64,000 nucleotides of DNA from positions 3,720,001 to 3,784,000 of the forward strand of contig NZ_CP037953.1 of NCBI RefSeq assembly GCF_009756665.1, given 5' to 3'. This document shows positions 3,546-14,026 of this stretch, in pieces. The stretch comes from Permianibacter aggregans. Lineage in GTDB: Bacteria; Pseudomonadota; Gammaproteobacteria; Enterobacterales; Permianibacteraceae. Position numbers and translations under genes: made by a program. Numbering within the stretch: the first letter of the stretch is position 1; each line of letters opens with the position of its first letter. The notes below the pieces were generated by a model, which did no database searches, was not told the origin of the DNA, and saw nothing but the letters and a program-made list of their open reading frames with translations.

Positions 3546-3635
3546 CAAAAAGCAAGAGGCCGCTTGTAGCGGCCTCTTCATCTGGTGCATCTTTCAGCTT
3601 GTTAGCGTCAGAGCACAAATCCCGATCTGATATCG
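3546..3635 (-). ncRNA. tracrRNA of the type II-C CRISPR system (predicted)
   Basis: The stretch 3601-3632 matches the CRISPR repeat (as its reverse complement) at 27 of 32 positions, with 18 contiguous identities (3615-3632). Read on the minus strand it is the anti-repeat for crRNAs transcribed from the minus strand of the array. Mismatches cluster near the guide-proximal end (positions giving a bulge), and one is a G-U wobble, the usual look of a crRNA:tracrRNA duplex. After the anti-repeat come about 22 nt with the segment GCTGAAAGATGC, which resembles part of the N. meningitidis tracrRNA tail, then a strong terminator. A promoter lies directly upstream. Length is about 90 nt; both ends are inferred. 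Confidence 0.85.
3547..3578 (-). terminator. Rho-independent terminator of the tracrRNA
   Basis: On the minus strand a perfect 10-bp stem (3569-3578 with 3554-3563) with a 5-nt loop is followed, after two bases, by five T residues (3551-3547). This closes the tracrRNA gene before the radical SAM gene and forms the 3' hairpin of the mature RNA. Confidence 0.85.
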
Positions 3636-3641
3636 GGTCTG

Positions 3642-3671
3642 ATGCTAATCGTCAGGAGGCTAACTCGTCAA
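3642..3671 (-). promoter_or_regulatory. Predicted promoter of the tracrRNA
   Basis: On the minus strand there is a -35 box TTGACG (3671-3666), an 18-bp spacer and a -10 box TAGCAT (3647-3642). The predicted start, about 7 nt further on, is near 3635, just before the anti-repeat. The -35 box ends only about 22 bp from the cas9 start codon, so the promoter lies in the cas9 leader and points away from cas9. Confidence 0.65.
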
Positions 3672-3692
3672 CCCATTCGAAAAGGAAACCAA

Positions 3693-6600
3693 ATGCTGGA
3701 TTCGAAAATGCCGTACCGCCTTGCACTGGATTTGGGTAGTAGCTCGTTGGGCTGGGCGTTGATTCGCCTAAACGCGGAAAACAAACCTTCTGCGATTATT
3801 AAGGCAGGTGTTCGAATTTTCCCGGACGGTCGGAACCCGAAAGATGGAAGTTCTCTAGCCGTCACGCGCCGCGAAGCGCGCGCTATGAGGCGGCGGCGTG
3901 ATCGTCTTTTAAAACGCAAAGCTCGTATGATTACTGTGCTTACGGAGCTAGGTTTTTTTCCCTCGGACTCATTAGAACGTAAGGCATTGGAATCACTGAA
4001 TCCCTACCGCTTGAGAGCAGAAGGGCTGGATAGAGAGCTTCAACCAGATGAATTCGCTCGGGCTCTTTTTCACTTGAACCAACGACGTGGCTTCAAGAGC
4101 AACCGGAAAACCGATAAAAAAGACAACGACAGTGGAGCGATGAAGCAGGCGCTGTCGAAGCTCAGACAAAACCTGGACGAGTCCAGTTGCCGCACGGTAG
4201 GGGAATGGCTCTTCCAGCGTCAGTGCGCCGGTCAGTCGCTGAGAGCCCGTTATCGAGAAACTCGACAAATTCATGAAGATGGGCGGACGCGAGTCGAAAA
4301 ATCATACGATCTGTACATCGACCGCACAATGATCGAAGCAGAGTTTGACACGCTCTGGCGTAGCCAAGCTGCCCGAAATCCGAGCCGGTATACCGATGAA
4401 GCACGACGGCGACTGAAAGATGTTTTGCTTTTTCAACGGCCGTTGAAACCGGTTCGTCCAGGTCGCTGCACGCTGCTTCCGGATGAAGAGCGGGCGCCAT
4501 TGGCATTGCCGAGTACACAGCGCGTTCGCATCTATCAAGAGCTGAATAATTTGCGAGTGTTGGGCGATTCACTGCAGGAATATGCGTTGACTCTTCAGCA
4601 GCGCGATCAGCTGGCCGCTGCGCTCGATCATCGACCGAAGATGAGCTTCGATCAAATTCGCCGCTTGTTGCGCCTGGATGGCCAGACCAAATTTAATCTG
4701 GAAGATATCAAGCGTCAGGAAATTAGAGGTAACGCTACAGCTGCCTTGCTGAGCAAAAGCGATTTTTTTGGAGAGCAGTGGCACAGCTTCAACTCGTCTC
4801 TGCAAGACGAGATTGTTCAACATCTGATTGCCGATGAAGAGGAGCAAGCGCTGATTGATTGGTTGATTGCCAATACCGGCATCGATGAGGCGTGCGCGCA
4901 GCGTCTTGCCGATGTTTCATTGCCACAAGGTTATGGTTCTCTTGGCCGAACTGCATTGGCGCGAATATTGCCGGCGCTGCGGCAAAGCGTTTTGCCATTC
5001 AGTGCTGCCGTTCAAGCAGCAGGGTTTGAACACCACAGCGCGCTTGATCATGTTCAGAAAACGGGTGAAATCCTTTTAGAGCTGCCTTATTACGGTGAAT
5101 ATCTGACACGTCACGTCGGTTTTGGAACAGGCAACCCTGATGATGTACTGGAGAAGCGGTATGGGCGCATCGCCAACCCGACCGTACATATTGGCCTCAA
5201 TCAGACTCGAGTTGTCGTTAACGCCTTGCTGAAACGTTATGGCCCTCCTCAAGAAATCATCGTCGAAGTGGCTCGCGAGCTTAAGCAAAGTAGAGAAGAT
5301 CGCCTGGCAGAACAAAAACGACAAGCCGAAAACCAGCGGCGGAATCAGCGACTTCGCGAGGAGGTCGCCGCTATATTGGAGATTGAAGAGCATGCCGTCA
5401 AAACGGCCGACATACAAAAGATGATCCTGTGGGAGGAACTGAGTCCGGACCCGGCTGACCGTCGCTGCCCCTATTCAGGCGAACAGATCAGCAAACACAG
5501 ACTATTGTCAGAGGAAGTTGAAATTGAGCATATCCTGCCATTCTCGGAAACACTGGATGACAGTTTGAACAACAAAACGGTAGCAATGCGAATGGCCAAT
5601 CGTGTGAAGGGCAATCGCTCGCCGTGGCAGGCGTTTGGTGAACATCCAATCGCAGGATTCGATTATCAGGAGATACTGGCTCGGGCAGAACGCATGCCTA
5701 AAGGGAAACGCTACCGATTCGCACCTGATGGCTATCAGCGCTGGTTGAAGGACGATGCGGGCTTTCTTGCTCGTGCCTTGAATGACACCCGTTACTTGAG
5801 TCGAATAGCGCGTGAGTACTTGAGGTTGATCTGTCCACAAGGTACACGAGTCATTCCCGGACAAATGACGGCGTTGCTGCGCGCCAAGTTTGGTTTGAAC
5901 GATGTGCTCGGACTACATGGCGAGAAGAATCGAAACGACCATCGCCATCATGCCGTTGATGCCTGTGTCATTGGCGTCACCGATCAGGGAATGTTAAAGA
6001 AATTTTCAGAAGCGGCCCGTTCGGCTCGTGAAAAGCAACTTGATCGATTGGTCGAGCATATGCCGTTGCCATGGCCAACTTATCGCGAGCATGTCAAACG
6101 AGCGATAAATGCAATTTGGGTCAGTCACCGGCCAGACCACAATTACCAAGGTCCAATGCACAACGATACCGCTTACGGCTTACTGGGTGATGGACGGGTC
6201 GTGCATCACAAATGGCTGGATGGAAAGCGCGAGCGAGTCGAAAAAAGCCTGAAAGTTATCGAGTTCAAAAATCCGGATGTGCGTAATCGTTCAGGCCAGC
6301 CTCGTCATGGCGTGACCGAGAACGGCTCTCCTCGACCGTACAAAGGCTACGATGGCAACAGCAATTATTGCATTGAGATTGTTCGAGTGGAGAATGGTCG
6401 TTGGCAAGGAGAAGTGATATCTACGTACACTGCCTATCAGACCGTGAAGGCCCAAGGAGAAAAACGCCTTCGCGATCCAAAGTTATCGCTCTCAGGTCAG
6501 CCGCTGATCATGCGCTTGATGATTGATGATGCGGTGCGACTGGAGATTGATGATCATATTCGGACGATGCGGGTTGCCAAAATCAGCGCAAACGGTCAGA

Positions 6601-6767
6601 TATTTATGTGCGATTTACACGAAGCCAATGTGGACAAGCGCAATCGCGACAAAAATGAGCTCTTTGCTTACGTTTCAAAAACTGCCGGGTCACTACATGC
6701 TGCGCGAGGTCGTAGGGTGACAATCTCGCCGTCCGGTGAGCTGCACGATCCCGGCTTCGCGGACTGA
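3693..6767 (+). CDS. cas9: Type II-C CRISPR endonuclease Cas9
   Basis: RNA-guided DNA nuclease of 1024 residues from the chosen ATG, which has AAAGGAAA six bases upstream. An in-frame ATG at 3642 would add 17 residues but lies inside the tracrRNA promoter. Size fits compact II-C Cas9 (Campylobacter 984, Neisseria 1082). Seen in order: RuvC-I with ALDLGSSSLGWAL (Asp13), an arginine-rich bridge helix (about residues 55-90, RREARAMRRRRDRLLKRKAR), QRRGFKSNRK, RuvC-II IIVEVARELK (Glu525), an HNH domain with CPYSG and EIEHILPFS (His613) and NKTVAMRMANRVKGN, and RuvC-III HHAVDACV (His753, Asp756). All catalytic residues are present, so both strands should be cut. The C-terminal PAM-interacting region is not recognisable by eye; the PAM is unknown. 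No csn2 or cas4 follows, as expected for II-C. Confidence 0.97.
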   Translation: MLDSKMPYRLALDLGSSSLGWALIRLNAENKPSAIIKAGVRIFPDGRNPKDGSSLAVTRREARAMRRRRDRLLKRKARMITVLTELGFFPSDSLERKALESLNPYRLRAEGLDRELQPDEFARALFHLNQRRGFKSNRKTDKKDNDSGAMKQALSKLRQNLDESSCRTVGEWLFQRQCAGQSLRARYRETRQIHEDGRTRVEKSYDLYIDRTMIEAEFDTLWRSQAARNPSRYTDEARRRLKDVLLFQRPLKPVRPGRCTLLPDEERAPLALPSTQRVRIYQELNNLRVLGDSLQEYALTLQQRDQLAAALDHRPKMSFDQIRRLLRLDGQTKFNLEDIKRQEIRGNATAALLSKSDFFGEQWHSFNSSLQDEIVQHLIADEEEQALIDWLIANTGIDEACAQRLADVSLPQGYGSLGRTALARILPALRQSVLPFSAAVQAAGFEHHSALDHVQKTGEILLELPYYGEYLTRHVGFGTGNPDDVLEKRYGRIANPTVHIGLNQTRVVVNALLKRYGPPQEIIVEVARELKQSREDRLAEQKRQAENQRRNQRLREEVAAILEIEEHAVKTADIQKMILWEELSPDPADRRCPYSGEQISKHRLLSEEVEIEHILPFSETLDDSLNNKTVAMRMANRVKGNRSPWQAFGEHPIAGFDYQEILARAERMPKGKRYRFAPDGYQRWLKDDAGFLARALNDTRYLSRIAREYLRLICPQGTRVIPGQMTALLRAKFGLNDVLGLHGEKNRNDHRHHAVDACVIGVTDQGMLKKFSEAARSAREKQLDRLVEHMPLPWPTYREHVKRAINAIWVSHRPDHNYQGPMHNDTAYGLLGDGRVVHHKWLDGKRERVEKSLKVIEFKNPDVRNRSGQPRHGVTENGSPRPYKGYDGNSNYCIEIVRVENGRWQGEVISTYTAYQTVKAQGEKRLRDPKLSLSGQPLIMRLMIDDAVRLEIDDHIRTMRVAKISANGQIFMCDLHEANVDKRNRDKNELFAYVSKTAGSLHAARGRRVTISPSGELHDPGFAD

Positions 6768-6772
6768 ATCCC

Positions 6773-7696
6773 TTGCCTGGCCGCATTGTAGAAATCGCCG
6801 ACGATCATCGACACCTGTCGTTGTTGCGAGGCTTTCTGGTGGTTGAATCGACAGGAGCTGATCGGCAGGAAATGGGGCGAGTGCCGCTGGACGATATCGC
6901 TGCCGTCATCGCCAATGCTCATGGCCTCAGCTACACCAATAATATTTTGGTTGCCTGTGCTGAGCGGGGTATACCGTTTGTGCTCTGTGCGGCCAACCAT
7001 AATGCAATCGGTTTGCTATTGACCATTGAAGGGAACAGTTTGCAGGCCGGTCGTATGCAAGCTCAATTGTCCTCGTCAAAGCCATTGCAGAAGCAGCTCT
7101 GGGCTTGCTTGGTACGCGCCAAACTTGCTCAACAGGCTTGGGTACTCGCGGAAACAGGCAAGCCTACGGCTCCAGTTACCGCATTAATTTCAAAAGTACG
7201 TAGCGGCGATAGCGGCAATATTGAAGCCCAAGGCGCGCAACGTTACTGGCCATTATTGTTCGGTACCAGTTTTCGCCGCGATCGTACAGTTGAAGGCATA
7301 AATAGCCTGTTGAATTACGGCTACACCGTACTGCGTGCTGCTATGGCTCGAGCCGTGGTTGCAGCGGGGTTACACCCGACACTTGGTTTGCATCATCACA
7401 ATGCCGGCAATGCCATGTGTCTTGTAGATGATTTGATGGAGCCTTTTCGCCCCTTGATCGATTATTGTGTATGGAAGTTATGCCAAAAGAGTCAGGAGTT
7501 CATTACGCCCGAAACCAAGCAAGAATTGGTTTATGTGCTATACCAAGATGTAGCGAGCCCTCAGGGGCGCACACCATTAATGCACGCAATACAGCAACTC
7601 GCCACATCCTTGGCGCAGGTTTATGTGGGAGAGCGTTTCGAGCTGGAACTACCTGAGCCGGGTGTGCTAGACGAGTTGTTAGATGACATAAATTGA
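6773..7696 (+). CDS. cas1: CRISPR-associated integrase Cas1 (type II)
   Basis: A 307-residue Cas1, the catalytic subunit of the Cas1-Cas2 spacer integrase. The metal-binding triad is visible: Glu151 (NIEAQGAQRYW), His207 (LHHHNAGN) and Glu223 (DDLMEPFRP), at spacing close to that of the S. pyogenes enzyme. The start is TTG, five bases after the cas9 stop; no in-frame ATG near this point would keep the N-terminal strand GRIVEIADDHRHLSL. The tight spacing implies one cas9-cas1-cas2 transcript. Confidence 0.95.
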   Translation: MPGRIVEIADDHRHLSLLRGFLVVESTGADRQEMGRVPLDDIAAVIANAHGLSYTNNILVACAERGIPFVLCAANHNAIGLLLTIEGNSLQAGRMQAQLSSSKPLQKQLWACLVRAKLAQQAWVLAETGKPTAPVTALISKVRSGDSGNIEAQGAQRYWPLLFGTSFRRDRTVEGINSLLNYGYTVLRAAMARAVVAAGLHPTLGLHHHNAGNAMCLVDDLMEPFRPLIDYCVWKLCQKSQEFITPETKQELVYVLYQDVASPQGRTPLMHAIQQLATSLAQVYVGERFELELPEPGVLDELLDDIN

Positions 7697-7704
7697 TGTG
7701 AGAT

Positions 7705-8031
7705 ATGTTGTCGGGATTTCGCATGACGTGGTTGGTTGTAATGTTTGACTTGCCGGTGCTGACCAAACCGGAGCGCAAAGCCGCAACCCAATTTCGGCTT
7801 ATGCTGCTGGACTATGGTTTTGAAATGAGTCAGTTCAGCGTATACATGCGTTATTGTTACAGCTCCGCACAGGTCGAGACCCTTTGCAAACGTGTGGAAG
7901 AGGCTTTACCTGACGGTGGTCGGGTCAATATCCTTCAGTTCACGGACAAGCAATATGAGCGGATCATTTCCTTCCATGGCGCGGTTCGGCAACCGAAAAA
8001 CCGCAATCCATCACAGTTCAATCTGTTCTGA
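7705..8031 (+). CDS. cas2: CRISPR-associated protein Cas2
   Basis: A 108-residue Cas2, the structural partner of Cas1 in spacer integration. The ferredoxin-like first strand WLVVMFDLPV carries the conserved Asp15, followed by KAATQFRLMLLDYGFEMSQFSVYMR, typical of type II Cas2. The protein ends in QFNLF. It starts 8 bp after the cas1 stop; an alternative ATG at 7723 would give 102 residues. It is the last cas gene; the array begins 64 bp downstream. Confidence 0.95.
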   Translation: MLSGFRMTWLVVMFDLPVLTKPERKAATQFRLMLLDYGFEMSQFSVYMRYCYSSAQVETLCKRVEEALPDGGRVNILQFTDKQYERIISFHGAVRQPKNRNPSQFNLF

Positions 8032-8058
8032 ATCATGATTTTTCTCTTGAGATTAATG

Positions 8059-8093
8059 AAAAAGCCCTTGCATAACAATAAGTTAAGCAAGGG
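8059..8093 (-). terminator. Minus-strand terminator at the cas2 end of the CRISPR array
   Basis: A 7-bp stem CCCTTGC/GCAAGGG (8065-8071 with 8087-8093) with a 15-nt loop is followed on the minus strand by CTTTTT (8064-8059). The T-run is on the minus-strand exit side, so it should stop transcription that has come through the array toward cas2. This agrees with the tracrRNA orientation. Confidence 0.7.
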
Positions 8094-8095
8094 GT

Positions 8096-10305
8096 AGTTT
8101 ATCAGATCGGGATTTGTACTCTGGCCGGAACGGCAATATTCGACGTGTTGCAGGTGTTCAAAGTTTATCAGATCGGGATTTGTACTCTGGCCGGAACAAT
8201 GTCGAGGTGGAAGTCAACAGCCGCCGCAGTTTATCAGATCGGGATTTGTACTCTGGCCGGAACAACCGCCAGGTTTTCCCTCGATTTATTGCAAGTTTAT
8301 CAGATCGGGATTTGTACTCTGGCCGGAACGCCACGTCGCCAGTGCTTTGGGCGTCATGCAGTTTATCAGATCGGGATTTGTACTCTGGCCGGAACACGGC
8401 GTAACTGGCGCGCTATCGACAGTTAAGTTTATCAGATCGGGATTTGTACTCTGGCCGGAACAGCGAAGGCTTTACATAGGCGCTTTTTTTAGTTTATCAG
8501 ATCGGGATTTGTACTCTGGCCGGAACGCATCGATGTTTTCGACGGTGTCATTCAGGAGTTTATCAGATCGGGATTTGTACTCTGGCCGGAACAATTGCGC
8601 CGCGTATTTCAGCGCGCCAGTGAGTTTATCAGATCGGGATTTGTACTCTGGCCGGAACGTTCGGCAGCGCGGTATTAATCCTGTCTCGAGTTTATCAGAT
8701 CGGGATTTGTACTCTGGCCGGAACTCGGGATCACCGAAGAGGAACTGGTTCGGGAGTTTATCAGATCGGGATTTGTACTCTGGCCGGAACTTAGGGAATC
8801 TAGTGATTTTTGGCGAATCGAGTTTATCAGATCGGGATTTGTACTCTGGCCGGAACCATGCACTATTGACAACGACGGGCTGACGCAGTTTATCAGATCG
8901 GGATTTGTACTCTGGCCGGAACGCTTTTGAAGCGTACAGCCCACAATTAATTAGTTTATCAGATCGGGATTTGTACTCTGGCCGGAACAAGTCGTGCGAC
9001 GTGCAACCGGTCCTAAAGAGTTTATCAGATCGGGATTTGTACTCTGGCCGGAACACAGGCGGTAACATTTGGTCAAAACTTCGAAGTTTATCAGATCGGG
9101 ATTTGTACTCTGGCCGGAACAGGTAGCGGTTTGACCGACAGCGACGTTCGAGTTTATCAGATCGGGATTTGTACTCTGGCCGGAACTAACAGCATCGCGC
9201 CAGCAACAACGGCGGCAGTTTATCAGATCGGGATTTGTACTCTGGCCGGAACAGTAGCCGGCGCCAAACAGCGCGTACAGTTAGTTTATCAGATCGGGAT
9301 TTGTACTCTGGCCGGAACACTATCGTTGATGGAATGCCCTCCCCGGCTAGTTTATCAGATCGGGATTTGTACTCTGGCCGGAACTCCAACAGCGGGTTTC
9401 TTTTTGTTCGCAGAGTTTATCAGATCGGGATTTGTACTCTGGCCGGAACGACAAGGGGATTGTGATGATAAAGCGACACAGTTTATCAGATCGGGATTTG
9501 TACTCTGGCCGGAACTTTGGGCTCTTCAACAAGCGCAATGCTTCGAGTTTATCAGATCAGGATTTGTACTCTGGCCGGAACATCACCAGCGATGAGGCGC
9601 TTCGTCGCCAAAGTTTATCAGATCGGGATTTGTACTCTAGCCGGAACTTGAAACGTTGAGGCCAGCCTCGGCCAAAAAGTTTATCAGATCGGGATTTGTA
9701 CTCTGGCCGGAACTACGTGTCGGTGATACCGGCATCGGTAAATAGTTTATCAGATCGGGATTTGTACTCTGGCCGGAACATTGCAATCGACGTATCACCG
9801 CTTGGTGTGAGTTTATCAGATCGGGATTTGTACTCTGGCCGGAACATTTCGGCATCGCGCACAACAAAACGACGCAGTTTATCAGATCGGGATTTGTACT
9901 CTGGCCGGAACCGAGGAAAACCGCATGTCTTGATCGGCGTTAGTTTATCAGATCGGGATTTGTACTCTGGCCTGAACATCAAGCACTACACCAATGTTCA
10001 GAAAGGAGTTTATCAGATCGGGATTTGTACTCTGGCCGGAACTTCTACCGCGCGCAGGGTTGTGTTCGCGCTAGTTTATCAGATCGGGATTTGTACTCTG
10101 GCCGGAACCTTCGCGCTGATGGTGTTGCGCAAATCGTTAGTTTATCAGATCGGGATTTGTACTCTGGCCGGAACTACCTCCGCAAGTTGCCGGAAATCCG
10201 CAGAGTTTATCAGATCGGGATTTGTACTCTGGCCGGAACCAAACAATTAACGCGATTAATGTTGCAATAAGTTTATCAGATCGGGATTTGTACTCTGGCC
10301 GGAAC
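8096..10305 (-). CRISPR. Type II-C CRISPR array, 34 repeats and 33 spacers
   Basis: The 36-bp direct repeat begins AGTTTATCAG and ends GGCCGGAAC on the plus strand. There are 34 copies at a 65-66 bp period, with 29 spacers of 30 nt and four of 29 nt (8462-8490, 9385-9413, 9978-10006, 10175-10203). Spacers are all different. Repeats are identical except single changes in the copies starting at 9546, 9612 and 9942. The crRNA strand is minus, because the tracrRNA anti-repeat pairs only with that strand and a terminator follows on that strand. Read this way each repeat ends in TGATAAACT, an extended -10-like element, as in N. meningitidis repeats that carry their own promoters. Protospacer sources were not identified. 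Confidence 0.98.
10270..10278 (-). promoter_or_regulatory. Extended -10-like element inside the CRISPR repeat (first copy in crRNA order)
   Basis: On the minus strand the last nine bases of the repeat read TGATAAACT: a TGN motif followed by a hexamer matching TATAAT at 4 of 6 positions. Every one of the 34 repeats has it at the same place, so each could start transcription a few bases into its own spacer. The N. meningitidis II-C repeat has TGCTACAAT at the same position. The promoter role here is inferred. Confidence 0.5.
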
Positions 10306-10340
10306 ATTTAACAGATCACCGGTTATACGCTGCCAGTCCA

Positions 10341-12044
10341 TCAGGCTGAGATTGTTGAGCGGTCAGTTGAGTTCCGTCTCAGTAACGGCAACGGCAACTC
10401 CCCCTCACACAACAACTGCTCATGAAACCTTTGCAAATCAAAACCAAGCTGTTGGCTGCATTCTCTACGCAAAGCGTGCATCTCCCGCTCCCCAAGCAGG
10501 TAGCCCAACGCTTGTCCCGGCCAGGTGATATAGCGGTCTACTTCGGTTTCGCTTTCGTGTTTGGATAATGACGAATGCTGATACAGATATTGCACAGCTT
10601 GTTCACGAGTCCAGCCTTTGGCGTGCAGGCCGGTGTCGATGACGAGGCGTGCGGCACGCCATAACCGATAGCTTAGCCAGCCGAGTTTGGCGTGTGGGTC
10701 ATCGTATAGACCGATTTCATTGCCGAGTGATTCGGCGTATAGCGCCCAACCTTCCTCATAAGCCGTGTTCAATAAGCAGCGACGAAATGCCGGCAGGTTT
10801 TCTCGTTCTTGGGTTAGTGCAATTTGCAGGTGGTGGCCGGGCATGGCTTCGTGCAGCGTGAGGGCGGGCAGCACATAGAGCGGGCGCGAATTCAGTTCGT
10901 GGGTGTTGACCCAGTATTCGCCGGGTCGTGAACCGTCGGCGGGTGGCTCCAGGTAGAAGCCGCTGGGGTAGGCAGGTGCAAGCTGTGCCGGTGTGGCTTT
11001 TACGTGGAAGGGCAGGTGCGGCAAACGAGAGAATAAACGCGGCAAGGCTGCATTGATGGTCTCGCAGAGTTGTGTGGCGTATTGCAGCAACTGCTCGGGT
11101 GTTTGCGCGTATTGGCGTGGGTCGTTACGCAGGGCGTCGATGCCTTTATCGAATGGGGTGGGTAAACCCAATTCCTTCAAAATCGCTTCGGCTTTTTCGC
11201 GTGTGGCGGCGACTTCTTCGAGGCCTATCTGGTGAATTTCGGCGGCGGTAAGTGACAGCGAGGTATGTTGGCGAATCAGTGCTTGGTACCAGGCTTCGCC
11301 ATCCGGTATTGCACAGAGGCCGGGTAGGGGCCTGCTGTGTTTCAGGTAAACGGTTTCGATAAATTCCGCGAAGGTTTGCAGTGCGGGTGCGACCAGCATT
11401 TGCAGTACGTTTTGCAAGCGTTGTTGAAACGCTGTGTCGTTAACCGCTTGATCGCTTGTTGGCTCAAAGGTTTGTGCCAAGCCTTGCTCCGATGCCATAA
11501 AACGAATGGCGATGGGCACGGCGCGTAAGGCTTCGGCGTATGGGTATTGCTGACGTTCCAGGGCTTTGTGCAGGAGTTGTTGTTGCTGCGCCAGCCAAAC
11601 CGGTAAGCCGCGTAAACGCGAGAGGTAATTTTCTCTTCCTTCGGCGGTGCTCAAGTCCGCTAGATGTAATAGCCGGGTGAGTTGCACGTGGAGGCCATGA
11701 CTGCTACCGAGCGGGGCGAGGTGATCGGGCGTTTCGGCTAAGCGCAATGTGGTTTGTAGTTGATAAAGCGCGACTTGACGCGAGAGTTCGTCGAGGCCGT
11801 TTTCCAGTTTGATCGCGGATTCAATATTTCGCAGGTGTTCACGACGGCTTAAGGTTTGTTTCTTGATGGCTTGTTCGGAGCTGTCGGGGAGTTGGTCGTC
11901 GTATTGCCGAACACCGCAGTAGCTGGCATAGAGCGGTGCGAAACGCATTTCGTCTTGCCACCAGTTGTTGATCGCGGCGTCGAGGGTGAGGATGGTGGTT
12001 GTTGGTTTTGGTTTTTGTGTTTGCATGGTGTCGGTAAGTCGCAA
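10341..12044 (-). CDS. DUF885 family protein, putative metallopeptidase
   Basis: A 567-residue DUF885 protein. The motif LTLHEAMPGHHLQ (about residues 392-404) is the family's HExxxGHH-type zinc site, and YEEGWALYAESLGNEIGLY, SKHESETEVDRYITWPGQALGYLLGE and the C-terminal FHEQLLCEGELPLPLL complete the family pattern, so it is full length. Related proteins act as carboxypeptidase-like or oligopeptide-degrading enzymes, but the substrate is not known. No signal peptide is evident, so it is probably cytoplasmic. Its stop lies 35 bp from the last CRISPR repeat, on the strand from which crRNAs are read, and no terminator is visible between them, so its transcript may run into the array. The first ATG (MRLTDTM) is not certain; a second Met at residue 7 is an alternative. 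Confidence 0.8.
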   Translation of the reverse strand: MRLTDTMQTQKPKPTTTILTLDAAINNWWQDEMRFAPLYASYCGVRQYDDQLPDSSEQAIKKQTLSRREHLRNIESAIKLENGLDELSRQVALYQLQTTLRLAETPDHLAPLGSSHGLHVQLTRLLHLADLSTAEGRENYLSRLRGLPVWLAQQQQLLHKALERQQYPYAEALRAVPIAIRFMASEQGLAQTFEPTSDQAVNDTAFQQRLQNVLQMLVAPALQTFAEFIETVYLKHSRPLPGLCAIPDGEAWYQALIRQHTSLSLTAAEIHQIGLEEVAATREKAEAILKELGLPTPFDKGIDALRNDPRQYAQTPEQLLQYATQLCETINAALPRLFSRLPHLPFHVKATPAQLAPAYPSGFYLEPPADGSRPGEYWVNTHELNSRPLYVLPALTLHEAMPGHHLQIALTQERENLPAFRRCLLNTAYEEGWALYAESLGNEIGLYDDPHAKLGWLSYRLWRAARLVIDTGLHAKGWTREQAVQYLYQHSSLSKHESETEVDRYITWPGQALGYLLGEREMHALRRECSQQLGFDLQRFHEQLLCEGELPLPLLRRNSTDRSTISA

Positions 12045-12117: not shown

Positions 12118-12153
12118 GGGTTTTTCCTTTGAATCTAGCGTCATTGCGTAATT

Positions 12154-12196
12154 CTCCCCCTCTCCCCAACCCCTCCCCCGCGAGGGGGGGAGGGGC
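12154..12196. repeat. GC-rich C-run/G-run hairpin
   Basis: CCCCTCTCCCC is followed by CCCTCCCCC-GCGA-GGGGGGAGGGG, a long hairpin found almost unchanged at 13901-13940. It lies just downstream of the semialdehyde dehydrogenase stop and may stop its transcription. Confidence 0.65.
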
Positions 12197-12220
12197 TAAA
12201 CCCTCCGCGTCGACGGGTGC

Positions 12221-13750: not shown

Positions 13751-13900
13751 TGCGTTCTCCGAAAAAATAGGCGCACGTGCTGTGCGCGAAATGTTGCAAG
13801 GGTGAACTAGAAACTATCTAAAAAATACCCGGAGCTTCAGGGGACTTGTTAGATAACTTCTAAAAAACGTCGTAGTTAAGTCGGTTAGAGCGGATTTCTT

Positions 13901-13940
13901 CCCCCTCTCCCCAACTCCTCCCCCGCGAGGGGGGAGGGGC
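13901..13940. repeat. GC-rich C-run/G-run hairpin
   Basis: Nearly the same sequence as 12154-12196, differing by one C-to-T change in the left part. Stem CCTCCCCC/GGGGGAGG around GCGA. Confidence 0.65.
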
Positions 13941-14026
13941 TAATTTGCCATTGCTTCAGCTAACGGTATTAGAGCAAGTTTCGGGGTTGTGATAAGGCCT
14001 TTCCCTAGCAAATTCAGTTTTACTTT

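What the first reader, a model, noticed from the sequence alone, without database searches (positions are those of the whole stretch)
3546..10305. Complete compact type II-C CRISPR-Cas9 locus with all parts identifiable
In one stretch of 6.8 kb there are a tracrRNA gene with promoter, anti-repeat and terminator, a Cas9 of about 1024 aa with intact RuvC and HNH residues, cas1, cas2 and a 34-repeat array with near-perfect repeats. All elements look functional. The combination of a short Cas9, a 36-nt repeat and a defined tracrRNA makes the PAM and guide structure predictable and worth knowing.
Basis: partly seen in the sequence, partly recalled or inferred. Interest (0 to 1): 0.85.

Follow-up and report, generated by a model that had tools for sequence, protein, structure and literature searches.

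The report
Type II-C CRISPR-Cas9 with self-targeting spacers
This is a complete but ordinary small-Cas9 bacterial immune locus of a family common in freshwater and soil betaproteobacteria; what was not noticed is that two of its 33 stored targets match the bacterium's own chromosome perfectly and that its helper RNA lacks one nucleotide present in all examined relatives, so it cannot be assumed to be fully active.

Summary
Window 3549-10305 holds a minus-strand tracrRNA, cas9 (1024 aa), cas1, cas2 and 34 36-nt repeats with 33 unique spacers. RuvC and HNH residues are intact, and 71 database loci carry 53-69% identical Cas9s, mostly Burkholderiales/Nitrosomonadales; one complete related locus is on a Limnohabitans plasmid. 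It is a new member of type II-C, not a new kind.

(1) Spacers 3 and 8, counted from the cas2-side (leader) end, match the host's own chromosome 30/30: upstream of the atp operon, and inside a GGDEF/EAL gene. Neither sits in an evident prophage. (2) The tracrRNA lacks one nucleotide at the anti-repeat junction. All 50 relatives with array and tracrRNA both readable keep a base pair there (repeat nt 8 or 7); the window has neither.

Four phage protospacers of relatives share a tentative N4-R-T flank. Both self-targets lack it, so absence of a PAM is the simplest reason for survival. A weakened guide RNA or an anti-CRISPR is not excluded. The window's own PAM is unknown: no foreign target was found. 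"All elements look functional" and "PAM predictable" are therefore only partly supported.

The parts
3549..3636 (-). tracrRNA: anti-repeat (about 3608-3636), conserved CGCTAACAAGC core, Rho-independent terminator (stem 3578-3554). One nucleotide shorter than relatives between CTCTG and CGCTAAC
3642..3671 (-). putative tracrRNA promoter TTGACG-18-TAGCAT
   Evidence: consensus match only; relatives have comparable TTGAC...TANNAT boxes at this place (by eye)
3693..6767 (+). cas9, 1024 aa; RuvC D13, E525, H753/D756; HNH E612-H613 and N636 (E before the catalytic H is clade-wide)
   Evidence: AlphaFold model closest to Nme1Cas9, HpaCas9, ThermoCas9, GeoCas9
6773..7696 (+). cas1 (type II/NMENI), 307 aa
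7705..8031 (+). cas2, 108 aa
8059..8095 (-). leader side: palindrome GCCCTTGC..GCAAGGGG followed on the minus strand by TTTTT; likely terminator of the crRNA transcripts and the acquisition end of the array. It abuts repeat 1, whereas in relatives several nt lie between
   Evidence: read by eye; its 15-nt loop is outside the limits of the terminator scan
8096..10305 (-). CRISPR array, 34 repeats (crRNA sense GTTCCGGCCAGAGTACAAATCCCGATCTGATAAACT), 33 spacers; extended -10-like TGATAAACT at each repeat's 3' end
8264..8293 (-). spacer 3 from the leader: 30/30 match to own chromosome G000:C1:2172382-2172411 (intergenic, upstream of the atp operon promoter); 3' flank ATTCAATC
8593..8622 (-). spacer 8 from the leader: 30/30 match to own chromosome G000:C1:2952367-2952396 (inside a HAMP-GGDEF-EAL gene, antisense to its mRNA); 3' flank GTTGCGAA

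Best explanation
A real, complete type II-C CRISPR-Cas9 adaptive immunity locus. Inferred mechanism: Cas1-Cas2 insert 30-nt fragments at the cas2-side end of the array; each repeat carries its own -10-like promoter for minus-strand crRNAs; the tracrRNA pairs with the crRNA repeat; Cas9 uses the dual RNA to cut DNA next to a PAM (tentatively N4RT by analogy with relatives). Two recent spacers were taken from the host chromosome and are tolerated most likely because their targets lack the PAM. Shown: anatomy, homology, the conserved minus-strand tracrRNA, the two perfect self-matches, the unique tracrRNA deletion. Inferred: activity, PAM, reason for tolerance.
For: Cas9, type II Cas1 and Cas2 by curated models and no csn2 or cas4 among the flanking genes. 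71 loci encode a related Cas9, and 53 of them also yielded readable arrays with repeats of the same orientation. The anti-repeat is on the minus strand upstream of cas9 in nearly all, and its terminator stem shows paired changes. Cas9 has only 6 mild departures from near-invariant positions, so no decay. Leader at the cas2 side: conserved palindrome there and degenerate repeats at the far end in relatives, as known for II-C (PMC12080349; PMC6008519). Self-matches: 30/30 twice, about 2e-10 expected by chance. PAM: phage-type protospacers of L001, L019, L023, L039 have purine at 5 and T at 6; the window's self-targets have CG and AA there.
Against: N4RT rests on four protospacers of relatives whose PAM-interacting domains are only about 49-63% identical to the window's. 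Some shared base at one of ten positions is expected about 15% of the time by chance, and two targets lacking T at one position is unremarkable. No protospacer of a non-self window spacer was found. The tracrRNA deletion could mean interference is already weak, so a missing PAM need not be the reason for survival. No expression or cleavage data exist.
Confidence: 0.66

Rival explanations
1. The locus is intact in its proteins but interference is crippled by the one-nucleotide deletion in the tracrRNA. The lower stem between repeat and anti-repeat is out of register, Cas9 loads or cuts poorly, and self-targeting spacers are therefore tolerated.
For: 71 of 73 related tracrRNAs have two nucleotides between the anti-repeat and CGCTAAC, one has 3, one has 4; the window alone has 1. 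All 50 scorable relatives keep a pair at repeat nt 8 or 7, with matching changes on both sides; the window keeps neither and its repeat has no compensating change (one search shows the changed predicted fold; L003 was mis-parsed by the script and read by eye). Disrupted pairing in the first 15 repeat nt inhibits cleavage in other systems (cited in PMC12080349). Both self-spacers are among the 8 newest of 33 (p about 0.05).
Against: The long upper duplex still forms (-42.7 kcal/mol). 6 of the 8 newest and all 25 older spacers do not match the host, whereas a long-dead interference step should let many host spacers accumulate (96% with dead Cas9 in II-A, PMC6990116). A GG-to-G assembly error cannot be excluded.
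Confidence: 0.2
2. The system is active and the self-targets carry a usable PAM, but an anti-CRISPR protein on a resident mobile element blocks Cas9.
For: Self-targeting is the classic sign of resident anti-CRISPRs (PMC6990116, PMC7648647), and AcrIIC proteins block the nearest solved Cas9s (Nme1Cas9, HpaCas9).
Against: The targets are ordinary chromosomal sites, not prophage. No anti-CRISPR gene was searched for by sequence. The flanks lack the motif shared by relatives' protospacers.
Confidence: 0.08
3. The self-matching spacers are regulatory: the crRNAs bind the c-di-GMP gene mRNA or the atp promoter region and tune expression.
For: Spacer 8 is antisense to the GGDEF-EAL mRNA; II-C Cas9s can target endogenous RNA (stated for C. 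jejuni and N. meningitidis in PMC6990116).
Against: The spacer 3 target lies upstream of the atp -35/-10 boxes, so it is probably not in the transcript (by eye). Perfect 30-nt DNA matches would normally be cut. No conservation was tested.
Confidence: 0.04

Closest known systems
Type II-C CRISPR-Cas9 of Undibacterium sp. Jales W-56 (L001) and the Burkholderiales/Nitrosomonadales clade L002-L071
   Same: Gene order, orientation, 36-nt repeat, minus-strand tracrRNA upstream of cas9, EHILP HNH motif, leader palindrome next to cas2
   Different: Cas9 at most 69% identical, PAM-interacting domain at most 68%; the window has a shorter tracrRNA junction, a leader palindrome abutting repeat 1, and two self-targeting spacers
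Limnohabitans plasmid pTEGF4 II-C locus (NZ_AP027057.1, L143)
   Same: cas9-cas1-cas2 plus array with similar repeats and the same tracrRNA core
   Different: On a 149-kb plasmid beside a MazF toxin-antitoxin pair; two nt at the tracrRNA junction
Neisseria meningitidis Nme1Cas9 / Haemophilus HpaCas9 / Geobacillus GeoCas9, ThermoCas9
   Same: Nearest solved structures by sequence and fold; same RuvC/HNH layout
   Different: No detectable sequence similarity in the PAM-interacting domain; overall identity low; PAMs of these enzymes cannot be transferred
Campylobacter jejuni and Riemerella anatipestifer II-C systems
   Same: Spacer acquisition at the last transcribed repeat next to cas2, promoters inside repeats (PMC12080349, PMC6008519)
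   Different: Distant Cas9s, different repeats

Membership tests
Type II-C CRISPR-Cas | cas9, cas1, cas2 only; no csn2 or cas4 | tested here: met
   flanking genes are a radical-SAM protein and a DUF885 protein
Type II-C CRISPR-Cas | Cas9 with RuvC and HNH catalytic residues, about 1000 aa | tested here: met
   the residue before the HNH histidine is E rather than D in all 67 aligned members
Type II-C CRISPR-Cas | Type II (NMENI-type) Cas1 | tested here: met
   TIGR03639 243 bits, cut-off 120
Type II-C CRISPR-Cas | 36-nt repeats with about 30-nt spacers | tested here: met
Type II-C CRISPR-Cas | tracrRNA with anti-repeat complementary to the repeat | tested here: met
   but with a unique 1-nt deletion at the lower stem
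Type II-C CRISPR-Cas | Promoter inside each repeat | tested here: inconclusive
   Extended -10-like TGATAAACT at each repeat's 3' end by eye; the sigma-70 scan found no full promoter
Type II-C CRISPR-Cas | Leader and spacer acquisition at the cas2-proximal end | tested here: inconclusive
   Clear in relatives; in the window three variant repeats lie towards the far end but the terminal repeat is intact
Type II-C CRISPR-Cas | RNA-guided cleavage next to a 3' PAM | not testable with these tools
   needs biochemistry; no foreign protospacer of a window spacer found

The most novel reading that the evidence does not exclude
A naturally occurring tracrRNA indel at the anti-repeat junction has switched off or down-tuned Cas9 interference while Cas1-Cas2 adaptation continued, so the array has begun to record the host's own chromosome: a natural snapshot of immunity failing through its RNA part rather than through cas9.
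Probability: 0.16. Interest if true: 0.6.

Novelty: new member of a known kind. Interest (0 to 1): 0.36.

Why it matters
Compact II-C Cas9s are useful tools, and this clade has no solved PAM-interacting domain, so the sequence set, conserved tracrRNA and tentative N4RT flank are a starting point. The self-targeting spacers with an intact-looking cas operon and an altered tracrRNA offer a direct test of whether missing PAM, weakened guide RNA or an anti-CRISPR keeps such a cell alive.

Tried and rejected
No targets of the window's non-self spacers: INPHARED phages, plasmids, 395 genomes of the same order (only 21-26 nt hits of chance strength) and seven exact IMG/VR scans, each pattern merging two spacers (14 spacers). 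Merged exact patterns of 26-30 nt miss protospacers with any mismatch. An eighth viral scan, with a spacer shared by two relatives, was empty. Spacers of relatives against an order reached through G726 gave nothing (only 11 genomes). Rfam has no family for this tracrRNA at any useful score. Cas9 decay was considered and rejected. Cas1 R216C and R250Q departures were not read as inactivating; these positions were not compared outside the clade. 'Self-targets are prophage' was rejected from gene content. Empty-site comparison was not possible: sister genomes are not syntenic there.

Full report
Observation. The locus exists as described. cas9 (3693-6767, 1024 aa), cas1 (6773-7696) and cas2 (7705-8031) are consecutive on the plus strand and identified by curated models. 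The array 8096-10305 has 34 repeats, 31 of them identical, and 33 different spacers of 29-30 nt. The tracrRNA lies on the minus strand just upstream of cas9, with a promoter-like pair of boxes and a strong terminator. Flanking genes are a radical-SAM protein, ApbE, a DUF885 protein and an aldehyde dehydrogenase. No csn2 or cas4 was seen, so the operon is type II-C.

Relatives. A scan of GTDB genomes returned 71 loci with 53-69% identical Cas9, mostly Burkholderiales and Nitrosomonadales, many from freshwater. Of these, 53 gave readable arrays, all with the same repeat orientation. The anti-repeat sits on the minus strand upstream of cas9 in nearly all. A complete related locus lies on the 149-kb Limnohabitans plasmid pTEGF4 beside a MazF toxin-antitoxin pair, and the two other sampled genomes of the host's family lack cas9. 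Both facts fit horizontal spread but do not prove it. The RuvC and HNH residues are conserved; the residue before the HNH histidine is glutamate in all 67 aligned members, so it is a clade trait. Nearest solved structures are Nme1Cas9, HpaCas9, ThermoCas9 and GeoCas9. The PAM-interacting domain has no sequence relative in the PDB even with a profile. The AlphaFold model is only moderate (pLDDT 77, pTM 0.48) and was used for the overall fold alone.

Polarity. [quoted passage not shown] This agrees with the published picture of II-C: acquisition at the last transcribed repeat and promoters inside the repeats (PMC12080349; Riemerella, PMC6008519). So spacer 1 (8132-8161) is the newest and minus-strand transcription runs from 10305 towards cas2. 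In the window the palindrome (8064-8094) abuts repeat 1 instead of being separated from it.

Self-targeting. Searching all spacers against the host's complete 4.27-Mb genome gave two perfect 30/30 matches outside the array and nothing else above chance; about 2e-10 such matches are expected by chance. [quoted passage not shown] Spacer 8 matches the sensor part of a HAMP-GGDEF-EAL gene, antisense to its mRNA. Neither region looks like prophage. Both spacers are among the 8 newest of 33 (p about 0.05). In relatives, arrays of 60 and 52 spacers have no self-match. Undibacterium hunanense (L011, 70 spacers) has one perfect self-match. Diaphorobacter caeni (L039, 69 spacers) has only a 3-mismatch hit in a phage-type gene. 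Self-spacers are thus rare but not unique.

tracrRNA. Between the anti-repeat and the invariant CGCTAACAAGC, 71 of 73 related tracrRNAs have exactly two nucleotides, one has three, one has four; the window has one. Across the 50 relatives with both repeat and tracrRNA in hand, one of the two nucleotides always pairs with repeat nt 8 or nt 7 (C8-G, U8-A, U8-G, G7-C), which is covariation. The window has neither pair and its repeat has no compensating change (L003 was mis-parsed by the script and read by eye). The predicted fold of the lower stem differs accordingly. The window is also the only aligned sequence with CCAGATG for CCAAATG. Other papers report that disrupted pairing in the first 15 repeat nucleotides inhibits cleavage (quoted in PMC12080349). 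Whether this deletion does is unknown, and a GG-to-G assembly error cannot be excluded.

PAM. No window spacer has a known foreign target. Among relatives, protospacers with at most 3-4 mismatches were found in phages or a phage-type gene for four spacers: L001 (four phages, T[AG]CGGTC), L019 (GGCCATG), L023 (TGCGATA, TCCTGTA), L039 (CGTCATG). All have a purine at position 5 and T at position 6. The three self-target flanks (window GTTGCG and ATTCAA; L011 GCCTAC) lack T6. Four independent cases, chosen after the fact and from Cas9s with diverged PAM domains, make N4RT a hint, not a result.

Verdict. An ordinary, complete type II-C locus of a large betaproteobacterial clade, worth more attention than a bare annotation because of its self-targeting spacers and altered tracrRNA. 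The most likely reading is a working or recently working system whose self-spacers are harmless for lack of a PAM. A weakened guide RNA is the main rival.

Noticed in passing
window about 12144-12197 and 13890-13942: Two copies of a G+C-rich palindromic element (CCCCTCTCCCCAACCCCTCCCCCGCGAGGGGGGGAGGGGC type) that recurs at about 88-97% identity in the host genome and in both sampled genomes of its family; looks REP-like.
   Followed up: partly
L143 (NZ_AP027057.1 43856-60741): Limnohabitans plasmid pTEGF4 carries a complete related type II-C locus beside a MazF toxin-antitoxin pair, so this Cas9 family can reside on plasmids.
   Followed up: partly
L149 1501-1530: Undibacterium hunanense (L011) has one spacer that matches another contig of its own genome 30/30, flank GCCTACAG.
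   Followed up: partly
L001 and L004 arrays: Two relatives from different genera hold the same spacer with one difference (TGATGCT[A/C]GCCACGGAAGATCGTGACCTCA), pointing to a shared, conserved phage target; a viral scan with its degenerate coding pattern was empty.
   Followed up: partly
cas2-array junction of nearly all relatives L001-L069: Conserved long palindrome followed on the minus strand by a T run between cas2 and repeat 1; fits both a crRNA terminator and a leader element. In the window it directly abuts repeat 1.
   Followed up: partly
window 3621-3637, minus strand: The start of the tracrRNA can form a 6-bp hairpin (CCCGAT..ATCGGG) that would mask part of the anti-repeat; not obvious in close relatives.
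   Followed up: no
window 10306-10343: The DUF885 gene ends only about 36 bp from the array on the same transcribed strand with no room for a terminator, and the first transcribed repeat is unmutated, so read-through could make a spacerless crRNA.
   Followed up: no
L010 tracrRNA, L064 upstream of tracrRNA: L010 has a tandem duplication of CGCTAACAAGCTGAA in its tracrRNA; L064 has an extra repeat-like sequence next to its tracrRNA.
   Followed up: no
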